The position numbers and the translations under genes were made by a program. Below, in pieces: positions 60,542 through 64,000 of a DNA stretch of 64,000 nucleotides. This DNA comes from Neorhizobium galegae bv. officinalis (lineage in GTDB: Bacteria > Pseudomonadota > Alphaproteobacteria > Rhizobiales > Rhizobiaceae): assembly GCA_000985875.1 (NCBI GenBank), contig CCRI01000009.1:62001-126000 (forward strand). Reading direction: 5' to 3'. Positions within the stretch are counted from its first letter, which is position 1; each line of letters starts with the position of its first letter. The notes under the pieces were generated by a model. That model saw nothing but the letters and a program-made list of their open reading frames with translations, did no database searches and was not told the origin of the DNA.

Positions 60542-62251
60542 TTACCCCTTCGTCGCCAGTACCCTGTTCGCCGCCGAGACGATTGCCTCGAGCGATGCTG
60601 CGACGATGTTCTTGTTGATACCGGCGCCGAACAGTTTTCCGTTCGGGTGCTCCATCTCCACATAGGCGATGGCGGACGCGTTCGAGCCGTGTTGCAGCGA
60701 ATGTTCGGAATAGTCGGCGACCGAGAGCTCTATGCCGAGATAGGTCGAGAGCGCGTTGATGAAGCCGTCGATCGGCCCCGTGCCCTTGCCTTCGATCCGC
60801 TTCACCTCGCCGCCGTCGGTGATCTCCGCTGCGACGACGCGAACGCCCTTGTGATCGACCCCGGCCGGAAAGGTGTGGTGATCAACGAATTTCAGCCGTG
60901 CGCCGGGTTGCTCCACGTAACGTTCGATGAAGCTGTCATAGATGCGCTTGGCGGGAAGCTCCACGCCCTCTTCGTCGGTGATCCGCTGGATCTCCTCGCG
61001 GAACTCGACCTGCAGATTGCGAGGCAGGTTCAAGCCGTAATCCTCTGCCAGGATATAGGCAATGCCGCCCTTGCCCGACTGCGAGTTGATGCGGATGATC
61101 GCCTCGTAGGAGCGCCCGACGTCGCGCGGATCGATCGGCAGGTAGGGCACTTCCCAGACCGGATGGTTGGCGACCTTTATCGCTTTCATGCCCTTGTTGA
61201 TCGCGTCCTGGTGCGAGCCGGAAAAGGCCGTATAGACCAGTTCGCCGACATAAGGATGGCGCTCGGGAATGACCATCTGGTTGGAATATTCGTAGACGGC
61301 CTTGATCCGCTCGATATCGGAGCAATCCAGTTCCGGATCGACCCCTTGCGTGTACATGTTGAGCGCCAGCGTCACCACGTCGACATTGCCGGTGCGCTCG
61401 CCATTACCGAACAGCGTGCCTTCGACACGGTCCGCGCCCGCCATCAGGCCGAGTTCGGTGGCAGCGATGCCCGTGCCGCGGTCGTTATGCGGATGCAGCG
61501 AGATGATGATGTTCTCGCGGTTGTCGAGATTGCGGCACATCCATTCGATCTGGTCCGCATAGATGTTCGGGGTCGCCATCTCGACCGTCGAGGGCAGGTT
61601 GAGGATCAGCTTGTCCTCGGCAGTCGGCCCGATCACCTCGGTGACCGCATTGCAGATTTCCAGCGCCACTTCCAGTTCGGTGCCGGTAAAGCTCTCCGGC
61701 GAGTATTGGAAGCGAAAACCGCCGCCGGCCTTCGCCGCCATGTCGGTGATCATCTTCGCCGCATCGACAGCGATCTGCTTGATGCCGGCGACGTCCTTGG
61801 CGAACACCACGCGGCGCTGCAGCTCGGAGGTCGAATTGTAGAAATGGATGATCGGCTTGTGGGCGCCTTGCAGCGATTCGAAGGTGCGGGTGATCAGCTC
61901 CGGCCGGCACTGCACCAGGACCTGCAGCGACACGTCTTCCGGCACGCCGCCCTCCTCCACGCACCAGCGAGCGAAGTCGAAATCGGTCTGCGAGGCGGAC
62001 GGAAAACCGATCTCGATTTCCTTGAAGCCCATATCGAGCAGCAGCTTGAACATGCGGGCCTTGCGGTCGTGGCCCATCGGATTGACCAGAGACTGGTTGC
62101 CGTCACGCAGGTCGACCGAACACCAGATCGGCGCCTTGTCGATGACCTTCGAAGGCCAGGTGCGGTCGGGAATGTTGATGGGGGGATAGGAACGGTATTT
62201 CACCGCCGCGTCGGGCATGCCGGATTTCGGGGAATGGGTCTTGGCGTCCAT
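60542..62251 (-). CDS. leuA: 2-isopropylmalate synthase
   Basis: 569 aa; the long (type 2) form. It condenses acetyl-CoA and 2-oxoisovalerate, the first step of leucine synthesis. The catalytic domain has CSVDLRDGNQSLVNPMGHDR, the metal site LHPHNDRGTGIAATELGLMA and GTLFGNGERTGNVDVV. The C-terminal regulatory domain for leucine feedback is present (residues from about 440). I start at ATG 62251 (MDAKTHSPKS), with AGAAGAGACG upstream; a GTG at 62275 is another option. A leucine-rich leader and promoter lie 150-320 nt upstream. Confidence 0.95.
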   Translation of the reverse strand: MDAKTHSPKSGMPDAAVKYRSYPPINIPDRTWPSKVIDKAPIWCSVDLRDGNQSLVNPMGHDRKARMFKLLLDMGFKEIEIGFPSASQTDFDFARWCVEEGGVPEDVSLQVLVQCRPELITRTFESLQGAHKPIIHFYNSTSELQRRVVFAKDVAGIKQIAVDAAKMITDMAAKAGGGFRFQYSPESFTGTELEVALEICNAVTEVIGPTAEDKLILNLPSTVEMATPNIYADQIEWMCRNLDNRENIIISLHPHNDRGTGIAATELGLMAGADRVEGTLFGNGERTGNVDVVTLALNMYTQGVDPELDCSDIERIKAVYEYSNQMVIPERHPYVGELVYTAFSGSHQDAINKGMKAIKVANHPVWEVPYLPIDPRDVGRSYEAIIRINSQSGKGGIAYILAEDYGLNLPRNLQVEFREEIQRITDEEGVELPAKRIYDSFIERYVEQPGARLKFVDHHTFPAGVDHKGVRVVAAEITDGGEVKRIEGKGTGPIDGFINALSTYLGIELSVADYSEHSLQHGSNASAIAYVEMEHPNGKLFGAGINKNIVAASLEAIVSAANRVLATKG

Positions 62252-62362
62252 GGTCGTCGTCTCTTCTCGCTTCACGCGTCGCTCGGCACCCGCCTGGGGA
62301 TTTGGCCGTCGTCGATGCGGACCTTTAGCGGTCTTTTGTGGCTTGGTCTTGAATGTTCGTGA

Positions 62363-62408
62363 GAGGAGCTCTTATGCCGGGCGGGCTTTCGGCCGCCGGG
62401 CGCTCCTC
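62363..62408 (-). promoter_or_regulatory. leuA: Candidate leuA attenuator region
   Basis: On the minus strand GAGGAGC (62402-62408) and GCTCCTC (62363-62369) pair across the end of the leader peptide. Competing GCCGGG/CCCGGC and GGCGG/CCGCC pairings are possible in between, which would allow alternative folds. There is no clear U-run after the hairpin, so the exact mode of attenuation is inferred. Confidence 0.4.
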
Positions 62409-62511
62409 AACGGACCCGGCAACCGCGCGTAAGGTCGAGGCTAAGAAGCGAGGAAAGCGCAAAGACCATCGTCCCGGCCGCGGTGCGGCGGGTAGACGAA
62501 CGGTCGGACAT
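62407..62511 (-). CDS. Leucine-rich leader peptide of leuA
   Basis: 34 aa from ATG 62511, stop at 62407-62409. Residues 15-27 read MVFALSSLLSLDL, five Leu in nine codons, all CTT or CTC. In-frame ATGs at 62532, 62526 and 62469 are other possible starts; I prefer 62511 because AGGCG lies upstream and it is inside the predicted transcript. The promoter at 62541-62569 would start transcription at about 62533-62536. This matches the design of amino-acid attenuator leaders. The leuA coding start is 156 nt downstream. Confidence 0.7.
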   Translation of the reverse strand: MSDRSSTRRTAAGTMVFALSSLLSLDLTRGCRVR

Positions 62512-62540
62512 GATTGCGCCTGTCATGGTCATGGGCGAAG

Positions 62541-62569
62541 TGTATAACCACAGAGTAGAAGAGAGGCAA
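62541..62569 (-). promoter_or_regulatory. leuA: leuA promoter
   Basis: On the minus strand TTGCCT (62564-62569) and TATACA (62541-62546) are spaced exactly 17 bases. It lies 8 nt after the brnA stop, so leuA has its own promoter beside the brnTA operon. Confidence 0.65.
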
Positions 62570-62577
62570 GTGGGCTT

Positions 62578-62820
62578 TCACTTGCCCTGGCGGCTTGCTT
62601 CCAACCGTTCGGCGATCCAGAGTTTCACCAGCGACTGCCGCGTAACGCCAAGGCGTCGCGCCTCCTGATCCAGTCCGTTCACGACCCAGGTCGGAAAATC
62701 GATATTGACGCGTTTGGGTTCGAGACCCGGGCGCGTGGCTTTAGACCAGTCCACATATTCGCTGATGTCCTCGCCATCGTCGAATTTCTTGTCGAACTCT
62801 TCAGCGGTTATTGTCTTCAT
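62578..62820 (-). CDS. brnA: BrnA-type antitoxin
   Basis: 80 aa. The pattern MKTITAEEFDKKFDDGEDIS, EYVDWSKATRPGLEPKRVNI and DFPTWVVNGLDQEARRLGVT matches BrnA/CopG-type antitoxins, with a ribbon-helix-helix near the C-terminus. Its start lies inside the end of brnT (20-nt overlap), the normal brnT-brnA order. It likely represses the operon through the AT-rich dyad at 63077. Confidence 0.85.
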   Translation of the reverse strand: MKTITAEEFDKKFDDGEDISEYVDWSKATRPGLEPKRVNIDFPTWVVNGLDQEARRLGVTRQSLVKLWIAERLEASRQGK

Positions 62821-63070
62821 AGATCTGCTTCTCTTTATCACGTGCGCGCCTGACCGATATAATTCGCAACCGATCTCCTCGCCATGTATAGACCGCGGTC
62901 CAATGCTTCTCCGCAATCTTCCCCGTAAGGATATATCGCAACTCCGTATCTGACCGGACCGGAGCGACGGTCCGCCCCTCATCAGTCCACAACGCCTGCG
63001 CTTCCACGAAATCGATTCCGTGCTTATCCTTGTTCGCAGCGCTTTTGTCAGGATCGAATTCGAACTGCAT
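62801..63070 (-). CDS. brnT: BrnT-type toxin
   Basis: 89 aa. The BrnT core is MQFEFDPDKSAANKDKHGID, FVEAQALWTDEGRTVAPVRS, TELRYILTGKIAEKHWTAVY and TWRGDRLRIISVRRARDKEK. BrnT is a RelE-like ribonuclease fold that arrests translation. It starts 38 nt after the stop of benE on the same strand. The start has only a weak ribosome site. Confidence 0.9.
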   Translation of the reverse strand: MQFEFDPDKSAANKDKHGIDFVEAQALWTDEGRTVAPVRSDTELRYILTGKIAEKHWTAVYTWRGDRLRIISVRRARDKEKQIYEDNNR

Positions 63071-63108: not shown

Positions 63109-64000
63109 TCAAGCACGTCTGATAAACCGCTGCAATCCCATCATCACGCCACCCGCGACGAGTCCCCAGAAGGCTCCGGAAATCCCCGCGAACGACATGC
63201 CCGACGCCGTCACCAGGAAGGTGATCGCCGCAGCTTCGCGTGTTTCCGGGTCGCGATAGGCGGCAAAGGCCGCGTTGGCAAAGGCGCCGATCAGGCCGAG
63301 ACCTGCCACCGCCTGCAGAAGGATCGGGGGCGCCAGCGACACGAAGGCGATGATGCCGCCGGCGATCAGGCCGAACACGATGTAACCGAAGCCAGCGACA
63401 ATCGCGGCCCAGTAGCGTTTGCCGGGATCGGGGTGGGCATCCTCGCTGGCGCACATCGCCGCCGTGATCGCCGCCATGTTGACCGGAACGCCGCCGACCA
63501 GCCCGCCGAGGATCGAGAAGATGCCGGTGCCGGCAAACATCACGCCCGGCGGCGGCTCGTAATGATGCACCTTCAGGATCGCGATGCCGGGAATGTTCTG
63601 CGAGGCCATGGTGACGATGAACAGCGGCAGCGCCACGGAGATCGCCCCGTGCAGGGTGAAGACCGGCGTGACGAAGGTGAGATCCGGGTGGATCGCCGCG
63701 CCGATCTGCGCCATCGCGTCCGGAGGAAGGTCGACGCCGAAGATCAGCACCAGGATCAGCGCACCGAGCGATGCCGGCACCGCCCACAGCCGCCAGCGCG
63801 AAACCACCACCATCCAGGTCAATACGATCGGCAGGCCGAGCGCTGCGTTAAAGGCGACGGCCTTCACCGGCGCGAGGCACAGCGTGAGCAGGATGCCGGC
63901 CAGCATGGCATTGGCAAGCGGTGCCGGGATCAGCCGGATCGCCCGGCTGAGCGGCCGGAACAGGCCGGAGAGGATGATCAGCACGCCGCAGACCACGAAG
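63109..64000 (-). CDS. benE: BenE-family benzoate/H+ symporter (5' end missing)
   Basis: At least 296 aa; the reading frame continues past the right edge, so the N-terminus is missing. Many membrane helices are present, with SVALPLFIVTMASQNIPGIA, ILKVHHYEPPPGVMFAGTGI and SILGGLVGGVPVNMAAITAA, the BenE core. The C-terminal end lies at 63109, followed by brnTA. No benABCD genes are in view. Substrate could be benzoate or a related acid. Confidence 0.9.
   Translation of the reverse strand, partial: FVVCGVLIILSGLFRPLSRAIRLIPAPLANAMLAGILLTLCLAPVKAVAFNAALGLPIVLTWMVVVSRWRLWAVPASLGALILVLIFGVDLPPDAMAQIGAAIHPDLTFVTPVFTLHGAISVALPLFIVTMASQNIPGIAILKVHHYEPPPGVMFAGTGIFSILGGLVGGVPVNMAAITAAMCASEDAHPDPGKRYWAAIVAGFGYIVFGLIAGGIIAFVSLAPPILLQAVAGLGLIGAFANAAFAAYRDPETREAAAITFLVTASGMSFAGISGAFWGLVAGGVMMGLQRFIRRA

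What the first reader, a model, noticed from the sequence alone, without database searches (positions are those of the whole stretch)
62407..62569. Leucine-rich leader peptide and promoter upstream of leuA: probable translation-coupled attenuator
A consensus-like promoter (TTGCCT, 17 bases, TATACA) is followed by a short frame with five leucine codons in nine, all CTT/CTC, ending about 155 nt before leuA. This is the classic layout of leucine attenuation. Alternative stem pairings overlap the end of the leader. No strong U-run follows, so the mechanism may differ from enterobacterial leu attenuation, for instance Rho or hairpin-dependent pausing.
Basis: partly seen in the sequence, partly recalled or inferred. 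Interest (0 to 1): 0.75.

Follow-up and report, generated by a model that had tools for sequence, protein, structure and literature searches.

The report
Leucine-sensing pseudoknot leader before leuA
A short leucine-rich reading frame and a conserved knot-forming RNA sit before the leucine-synthesis gene leuA in this rhizobial genome, and the same layout occurs before leuA in actinobacteria, so the ribosome probably reads leucine supply here in a way that differs from the textbook attenuator.

Summary
On the minus strand a promoter (62569-62541) stands 8 nt before the ATG of a 41-codon frame (62532-62407). The frame has five CTT/CTC codons in nine and ends 155 nt before leuA (62251-60542).

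It is not chance: it is in 57 of 57 genomes of the genus (own included) and 234 of 297 sampled of the family. A frame-neutral search found promoter plus ATG at 135 of 136 loci, all 135 in frame with the Leu run; the transcript is probably leaderless.

Two covarying helices follow. S1 has its 5' strand in the last leader codons. S2 has its 5' strand in the S1 loop, at the stop codon, abutting the S1 3' strand. Together they can form an H-type pseudoknot (136 of 136 loci). There is no U-run.

The same anatomy precedes leuA in 80 of 83 actinobacterial leaders (the LEU element, published in 2005 and left unexplained), in three Cupriavidus records and, in part, in three other alphaproteobacterial loci.

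Best explanation: ribosome position on the Leu codons decides whether S1 and the pseudoknot form, and so whether leuA is expressed. The output step (Rho-type termination or translation) is not shown; no expression data were available. New variant of a known kind.

The parts
62564..62569 (-). -35 element TTGCCT (CTTGCC in context)
   Evidence: TTG, 16-18 nt, TA-box at this place in 130 of 136 loci
62541..62546 (-). -10 element TATACA, 17 nt from the -35 element, 8 nt before the leader ATG
62407..62532 (-). leader ORF, 41 codons plus TGA, probably translated from a leaderless transcript
62431..62457 (-). Leu run CTT TCC TCG CTT CTT AGC CTC GAC CTT
   Evidence: conserved as SLLSLDL, LLLLGL and variants
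62415..62425 (-). S1 5' strand CGGTTGCCGGG (last leader codons)
   Evidence: covariation in A2; position
62402..62408 (-). S2 5' strand GAGGAGC; its first two bases are the last two of the stop codon TGA
62390..62400 (-). S1 3' strand CCCGGCGGCCG, next to the S2 5' strand
62370..62400 (-). stretch that can instead fold as an inner hairpin (S1 3' strand with the spacer), extending S2 into one long nested hairpin
62363..62369 (-). S2 3' strand GCTCCTC, not followed by a U-run
62320..62333 (-). small third hairpin GACC-GCTAAA-GGTC; sequence differs but pairing recurs at this place in the genus
   Evidence: better than shuffles at p<=0.05 in 16 of 58 genus loci
62258..62268 (-). purine-rich leuA ribosome-binding region GAGAAGAGACG
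60542..62251 (-). leuA, 2-isopropylmalate synthase of the leuA_yeast (TIGR00970) type
   Evidence: (756 bits, cut-off 697)

Best explanation
It is a ribosome-read leucine switch in the leuA transcript. Transcription starts at or next to the leader AUG, and ribosomes translate the leader at once. When leucyl-tRNA is short the ribosome halts on the CTT/CTC codons. From the codon positions and the usual footprint (recalled), a halt on any of the first four leaves the S1 and S2 5' strands free, so S1 forms as it is transcribed and S2 can lock it into an H-type pseudoknot; leuA is expressed. When leucine is plentiful the ribosome runs to the stop codon and covers both 5' strands. With no U-run, the turn-down is most likely premature termination with help from Rho, and less likely a block of leuA translation. 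Shown here by comparison: promoter position, frame, Leu run, S1, S2, their adjacency, the stop codon at the loop, absence of a U-run. Inferred: the ribosome effect, which state is ON, and the output step.
For: The leader is present in 57 of 57 genus genomes (in about a dozen only some 90-110 bases align) and 234 of 297 family genomes. Peptide ends are conserved as ...SLLSLDLTRGCRVR*...LLLLGLIGDRRAR* and variants. Promoter and ATG are in frame at 135 of 135 loci found. CTT is strongly enriched over CTG. S1 and S2 are paired in 99.5% of cells over 90 distinct sequences, 6 of 18 pairs with changes on both sides; no shuffle of 500 reached the percentage paired, the double changes or the covariation score, though 72 reached the number of pair types. 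A pseudoknot beats all 20 shuffles at 136 of 136 loci; the S2-S1 junction is 0-1 nt in 135; the stop codon lies in or at the edge of the S1-S2 loop in 136. Among shuffles that form any pseudoknot the junction is 0-1 nt in 70 of 437. The same anatomy is seen in 80 of 83 actinobacterial leaders.
Against: No expression, TSS or ribosome data were available. Minimum-energy folding of the window never forms S1, even with Leu codons masked, so S1 needs co-transcriptional folding or the pseudoknot, which this program cannot score. The competing inner hairpin also has support (40 of 91 sequences at p<=0.05), so the pseudoknot is a capacity, not a demonstrated structure. One 121-nt stretch around it folds little better than shuffles (z -0.8). 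Many double changes in S1 are one inherited-looking G-C to A-U difference (41 of 90 sequences). Pairing of the Leu run with the S2 5' strand shows no covariation. The first half of the leader shows no codon-position bias (variable sites 12, 13 and 14 of 29). For the actinobacterial element, Seliverstov 2005 cites an experiment in which Leu-codon mutations did not change regulation (section 9 read). 63 of 297 family genomes gave no match. In L178 the pseudoknot is there but no frame stops in its loop.
Confidence: 0.68

Rival explanations
1. Classical transcription attenuator: S1 is the antiterminator, the long nested hairpin (S2 plus inner stem) is an intrinsic terminator, and the pseudoknot geometry is incidental.
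For: The nested hairpin is stable (-27.8 kcal/mol, z -3.3). The inner stem is better than shuffles on average (mean z -1.6). In three Cupriavidus records the S2 3' strand is followed by T-runs.
Against: Mean T count in the 9 nt after S2 is 1.8, and 1 of 90 Rhizobiaceae loci has a T-run of 4 or more. The 0-1 nt junction between S2 and S1 in 135 of 136 Rhizobiaceae and 80 of 82 actinobacterial loci (16% in shuffles) is not needed for a plain switch.
Confidence: 0.2
2. Translational switch: the pyrimidine-rich Leu run, or the S2 3' strand, pairs with the leuA ribosome-binding site; a halted ribosome frees it. This is the base stem proposed for the actinobacterial LEU element.
For: The Leu run pairs with the own ribosome-binding region at mean -13.0 kcal/mol against -12.3 after permutation, and the S2 3' strand at -8.4 against -7.9; 0 of 200 permutations reached either.
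Against: Related sequences inflate that test; 105 of 135 loci passed its filters, and leuA starts were assigned by a script that took some doubtful ATGs. Both partners are expected to be complementary simply because one is CTT/CTC and the other purine-rich. The leuA ribosome-binding sequence varies (GAAGAGA, CGGGAGA, ACGAGA) without matching S2.
Confidence: 0.22
3. Protein- or metabolite-binding RNA element, as proposed in 2005 for the actinobacterial LEU element; the Leu codons are secondary.
For: A 35-nt core is almost invariant across the genus. The 2005 paper favoured a regulatory protein and cited Leu-codon mutations without effect.
Against: Leu codons, frame, promoter spacing and the stop position are all conserved although the first half of the peptide is free to change. 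S1 and S2 vary compensatorily across the family. The helper protein proposed in 2005 was reported there as absent outside Actinobacteria; I did not search for it.
Confidence: 0.08

Closest known systems
LEU element of Actinobacteria (Seliverstov et al. 2005, PMC1262725; abstract, sections 7 and 9 and passages read)
   Same: Upstream of leuA of the same protein type. Short frame with a run of Leu codons. Pseudoknot. No obvious terminator. Re-derived here in 83 of 84 fetched actinobacterial loci (found by a Leu-run pattern), with S1 10-12 bp, S2 5-9 bp, junction 0-3 nt (0-1 in 80 of 82), stop codon at the loop.
   Different: The helix sequences differ. The rhizobial leader peptide is 25-49 residues (127 of 136 at 38-41) against a commonest form of 13 (46 of 83). 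That paper describes it in Actinobacteria only. The pairing of the Leu run with the leuA ribosome-binding site is inconclusive here.
Enterobacterial leu operon attenuator (Rfam Leu_leader; name recalled)
   Same: Leu-codon leader peptide before a leucine gene; alternative pairings near the leader end.
   Different: No U-run terminator; not among the four Rfam matches at E up to 10, none of which fits; probably leaderless. That the enterobacterial leuA is of another protein type is recalled.
trpL leader of Sinorhizobium meliloti (PMC7298713 and PMC10117765, passages read)
   Same: Leaderless leader peptide in the same family of bacteria, controlling an amino-acid gene.
   Different: trpL works with a terminator that releases a small RNA (rnTrpL); none is evident here. 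leuA does not occur in the main text of PMC10117765.
Attenuators predicted in proteobacteria (Vitreschak et al. 2004; Lopatovskaya et al. 2010)
   Same: Surveys of amino-acid leaders; either may already list rhizobial leuA leaders.
   Different: Neither paper is held, so their content on leuA is unknown to me. A later screen of alphaproteobacterial RNA elements (PMC1273637, passages) mentions an ilvB leader from the 2004 paper and has no occurrence of leucine.

Membership tests
Actinobacterial LEU element | Lies upstream of leuA | tested here: met
Actinobacterial LEU element | Leader frame with a run of Leu codons | tested here: met
Actinobacterial LEU element | Pseudoknot of two helices after the Leu run | tested here: met
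   pairing, covariation and geometry only; no structure probing
Actinobacterial LEU element | Base stem between the Leu run and the leuA ribosome-binding site | tested here: inconclusive
   confounded by relatedness and composition
Actinobacterial LEU element | Common descent (detectable by one profile) | tested here: inconclusive
   Model R2 from Rhizobiaceae: 15 hits at E<=2 in 52 of the 84 actinobacterial loci, 8 of them at the LEU element starting 3-6 nt before the Leu run, E 0.07-1.5. Among 32 other leuA loci, 12 hits at E<=1, 6 of them at the leader (L178, L181, L080, L169, L172, L168; E 2e-6 to 0.53); L173, L170, L171 missed
Actinobacterial LEU element | Occurs in Actinobacteria (as published) | tested here: not met
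   Nearest named records are Rhizobiaceae; this is the extension claimed
Classical ribosome-mediated transcription attenuator (enterobacterial leu type) | Leader peptide rich in the regulated amino acid | tested here: met
Classical ribosome-mediated transcription attenuator (enterobacterial leu type) | Mutually exclusive helices | tested here: inconclusive
   S1 and the inner stem compete for one strand, but S1 and S2 can coexist
Classical ribosome-mediated transcription attenuator (enterobacterial leu type) | Intrinsic terminator with U-run | tested here: not met
   1 of 90 loci with a T-run of 4 or more
Classical ribosome-mediated transcription attenuator (enterobacterial leu type) | Expression responds to leucine through the leader codons | not testable with these tools
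   needs reporter experiments
Leaderless leader of trpL type | Transcript starts at the leader AUG | tested here: inconclusive
   Promoter 6-9 nt before the AUG in 130 of 136 loci; no 5'-end data

The most novel reading that the evidence does not exclude
One ancient, ribosome-gated pseudoknot controls leuA of the leuA_yeast type in Actinobacteria, Rhizobiaceae, some other Alphaproteobacteria and Cupriavidus. The stop codon sits at the pseudoknot loop, so a halted ribosome permits the knot and a terminating ribosome forbids it. This would be a leucine switch that needs no U-run terminator, and it would explain the LEU element, which its discoverers left unexplained in 2005.
Probability: 0.42. 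Interest if true: 0.75.

Novelty: new variant of a known kind. Interest (0 to 1): 0.6.

Why it matters
The LEU element was left as an enigma in 2005, with a protein-binding site as the favoured reading and a transposase gene as a possible origin. Finding the same anatomy (Leu run, S1 at the end of the frame, stop codon at the loop, S2 abutting S1) in rhizobia and Cupriavidus makes an actinobacterial helper protein less likely and points to the ribosome itself. It also moves the question into Sinorhizobium meliloti, where leader peptides have been tested directly. If right, it adds a pseudoknot to the ways in which a ribosome position is turned into gene control, and gives a searchable RNA family that Rfam did not match here.

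Tried and rejected
Rfam: four chance-level matches up to E 10, none fitting. The strict sigma-70 scan listed no promoter; comparison replaced it. Coding periodicity of the first half of the leader: none, so peptide function of that half is not supported. Leu run or S2 3' strand against the leuA ribosome-binding site: weak and confounded. Masked folding did not produce S1. In the actinobacterial alignment covariation is weaker than in rhizobia: most double changes are in S1, 122 of 500 shuffles reached the pair types and 5 the covariation score, and a slide of -3 columns scored slightly higher on covariation (0.112 against 0.105) though it pairs only 58% of cells. Weak order-level hits L075 and L076 (E 2.5e-4 and 8.7e-4) do not look like the leader and were left out, as was L080 from the family set. 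Of 97 strong matches, 78 were used with the 58 same-genus loci L002-L059 (136 in all, window included as L002); 19 close relatives were left out. Alignment A2 holds 91 loci, 90 of these 136 plus L063; one search used 90 of the 91. L257 had no leader by my pattern and L290 no pseudoknot by my search. A class-wide search with R2 found one genome besides the window's own among 289 (G1076; leader end ILLLGLIGARRA* and a pseudoknot, not shuffled). Other alpha- and betaproteobacterial leuA genes have leaders of their own kinds, not analysed further. Paper searches for a rhizobial leuA leader or pseudoknot listed none that I recognised; I opened passages of seven papers, and two likely papers are not held.

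Full report
What is there. On the minus strand of the window, between an antitoxin gene ending at 62578 and leuA starting at 62251, lie a promoter (TTGCCT 62569-62564, 17 bases, TATACA 62546-62541), an ATG 8 nt further on, and a 41-codon frame ending in TGA at 62409-62407. The last third of the frame reads CTT TCC TCG CTT CTT AGC CTC GAC CTT, followed by codons that form the 5' strand of a GC-rich helix. leuA is a 2-isopropylmalate synthase of the leuA_yeast type (TIGR00970, 756 bits; Pfam domains HMGL-like, IPMS_D2 and LeuA_dimer).

It is conserved. A DNA search found the region in 57 of 57 genomes of the genus, the window's own included; in about a dozen only some 90-110 bases align. A sequence-only profile built from 34 of those loci found it in 234 of 297 sampled genomes of the family and in 15 of 249 of the order (two of the 15 are weak and were discarded). 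Named carriers are Rhizobium leguminosarum, Sinorhizobium meliloti and Shinella records. The leader ends in SLLSLDLTRGCRVR, SLLLLGLIRGCRVR, LLLLGLIGDRRAR or a variant of these.

It is translated by inference. At 136 loci (58 of the genus, 78 of the 97 strong matches) a promoter-like pair stands 6-9 nt before a leader ATG in 130, against 37 of 2720 shuffles. When promoter plus ATG was sought without regard to frame it was found in 135, and all 135 ATGs are in frame with the Leu run. This spacing leaves no room for a ribosome-binding site, so the leader mRNA is probably leaderless, as trpL of S. meliloti is (PMC7298713 and PMC10117765, passages read). In the Leu window CTT makes up 460 of 709 Leu codons, against 12% in 32 long window ORFs; CTG makes up 28 of 709, against 49%. 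Relatedness inflates all of these counts. The first half of the leader shows no codon-position bias in 44 genus loci, as expected if only the frame matters there.

The RNA. Two helices covary in an alignment of 91 sequences made with the sequence-only profile. S1 (62425-62415 with 62400-62390) keeps pairing through a G-C to A-U change in 41 of 90 distinct sequences, which may be one inherited event. S2 (62408-62402 with 62369-62363) keeps it through changes such as GAGGAGC:GCTCCTC, AAGAAGC:GCTTCTT and AAAGAGC:GCTCTTT (L113 and L153). Over both helices 99.5% of cells pair; sliding the partners by 1-3 columns gives 34-58%. Pairing of the Leu run with the S2 strand, by contrast, shows no covariation. 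The S2 5' strand lies in the S1 loop, overlaps the stop codon in the window, and abuts the S1 3' strand: the junction is 0-1 nt in 135 of 136 loci, and the stop codon lies in or at the edge of the loop in 136 of 136. Among shuffled sequences that can form any such knot the junction is 0-1 nt in 70 of 437. That is the geometry of an H-type pseudoknot; it beats all 20 shuffles at every one of 136 loci. The S1 3' strand can instead pair with the spacer, extending S2 into one long hairpin; this is better than shuffles at p<=0.05 in 40 of 91 sequences. The two folds compete for one strand, which is what a switch needs. Thermodynamic folding of the window gives the long hairpin and not S1 in every case tried except the ribosome at the stop codon, where S2 is covered too. 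Pseudoknots cannot be scored by that program.

No terminator of the usual kind. Mean T count in the 9 nt after S2 is 1.8, and 1 of 90 loci has a T-run of 4 or more in 12 nt. The first 20 nt after S2 are poor in G (13-15%). A third small hairpin follows about 30 nt downstream; its sequence changes but hairpins recur there in the genus, better than shuffles at p<=0.05 in 16 of 58 loci and in 10 of 77 of the rest of the family.

Relatives outside the family. Actinobacterial leuA genes have a short frame such as MQRALLLGRRDGV* followed by S1 CCGCGACGGG:CCCGTCGCGG and S2 GACCGGC:GCCGGTC. In 54 aligned sequences 98.8% of cells pair, with fewer double changes than in rhizobia. The pseudoknot beats all 20 shuffles in 80 of 83 loci, with a 0-1 nt junction in 80 of 82 (57 of 363 in shuffles) and the stop codon at the loop in 82 of 82. 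These loci are the best 80 of a capped search seeded with a Nocardia protein, plus four plasmid-collection records, so they represent mainly Mycobacteriales and Pseudonocardiales. This is the LEU element of Seliverstov et al. 2005 (PMC1262725; abstract, sections 7 and 9 and passages read), described there for Actinobacteria, with a pseudoknot and a Leu run pairing with the leuA ribosome-binding site, and left unexplained. Three Cupriavidus records (frame ends SLLLDLPTGCRA, SLLLALPIGCRA or SLLLSLPIGCRA; S2 GTGGC:GCCAC followed by T-runs) show the same arrangement. So do, in part, a Rhizobium sp. leuA paralogue (L181, frame ends LRLSRGRRA* in the loop), an Ochrobactrum paralogue (L178, knot present but no frame stops in the loop) and one genome outside the order (L294, ILLLGLIGARRA*, S2 AACGGC:GCCGTT). 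A structure profile from Rhizobiaceae gives 12 hits at E<=1 in 32 other leuA loci, 6 of them at the leader, including the best five (E 2e-6 to 0.11). In 52 of the 84 actinobacterial loci it gives 15 hits at E<=2, of which 8 lie at the LEU element in the same register. Each actinobacterial hit is marginal; together they are unlikely by chance, but convergence under the same constraints is not excluded.

How it most likely works. From codon positions and the usual ribosome footprint (recalled), a ribosome halted on any of the first four Leu positions leaves S1 and S2 free, whereas a ribosome at the stop codon covers both 5' strands. Hence low leucine favours S1 and the pseudoknot, and high leucine favours the spacer hairpin. 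Since leuA should be on when leucine is low, the pseudoknot is proposed as the ON state. The OFF output is proposed to be Rho-assisted termination before leuA, because there is no U-run; a translational block is the main alternative, and the pairing tests for it were confounded. The 2005 paper cites an experiment in which Leu-codon mutations did not change regulation in an actinobacterium; this counts against the ribosome model there and the test must be made in rhizobia.

What is new. In the papers searched I found no description of this leader in rhizobia, nor of the LEU-type pseudoknot outside Actinobacteria. These searches give listings; I opened passages or sections of PMC1262725, PMC10117765, PMC7298713, PMC1273637, PMC4833913, PMC2965389 and PMC2659441. 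Two likely sources, Vitreschak 2004 and Lopatovskaya 2010, are not held, so a prior listing of a rhizobial leuA attenuator is possible. I therefore file it as a new variant of a known kind.

Noticed in passing
window 62578-63070 (-): A BrnT-type toxin gene (62801-63070) and a CopG-type antitoxin gene (62578-62820) lie just upstream; the antitoxin stop codon is 8 nt before the -35 element. In a Rhizobium leguminosarum plasmid record an annotated benE transporter gene is the next listed gene before leuA; the window ORF at 63109-63996 resembles such a transporter by eye only.
   Followed up: partly
window 62320-62333 (-): A third small hairpin about 30 nt after S2 recurs in the genus with changed sequences (gacc:ggtc, gatctcg:cgagatc, gcctc:gaggc, ggacc:ggtcc); function unknown.
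   Followed up: partly
L202, L208, L212, L175 upstream of leuA: Other alphaproteobacteria (Sphingomonas is the named one) have a different short leader ending LRLIRP* or LRLTRP*, with long complementary stretches around the stop codon.
   Followed up: no
L211 upstream of leuA: A leuA leader (ending MQNLSLALLLMSNGQRK*) followed by what looks like an ordinary terminator with a U-run, suggesting that textbook attenuation also occurs before this leuA type.
   Followed up: no
genomes G044, G371, G586, G527: A second match to the leader model in one genome, perhaps a second leuA or another gene under the same control.
   Followed up: no
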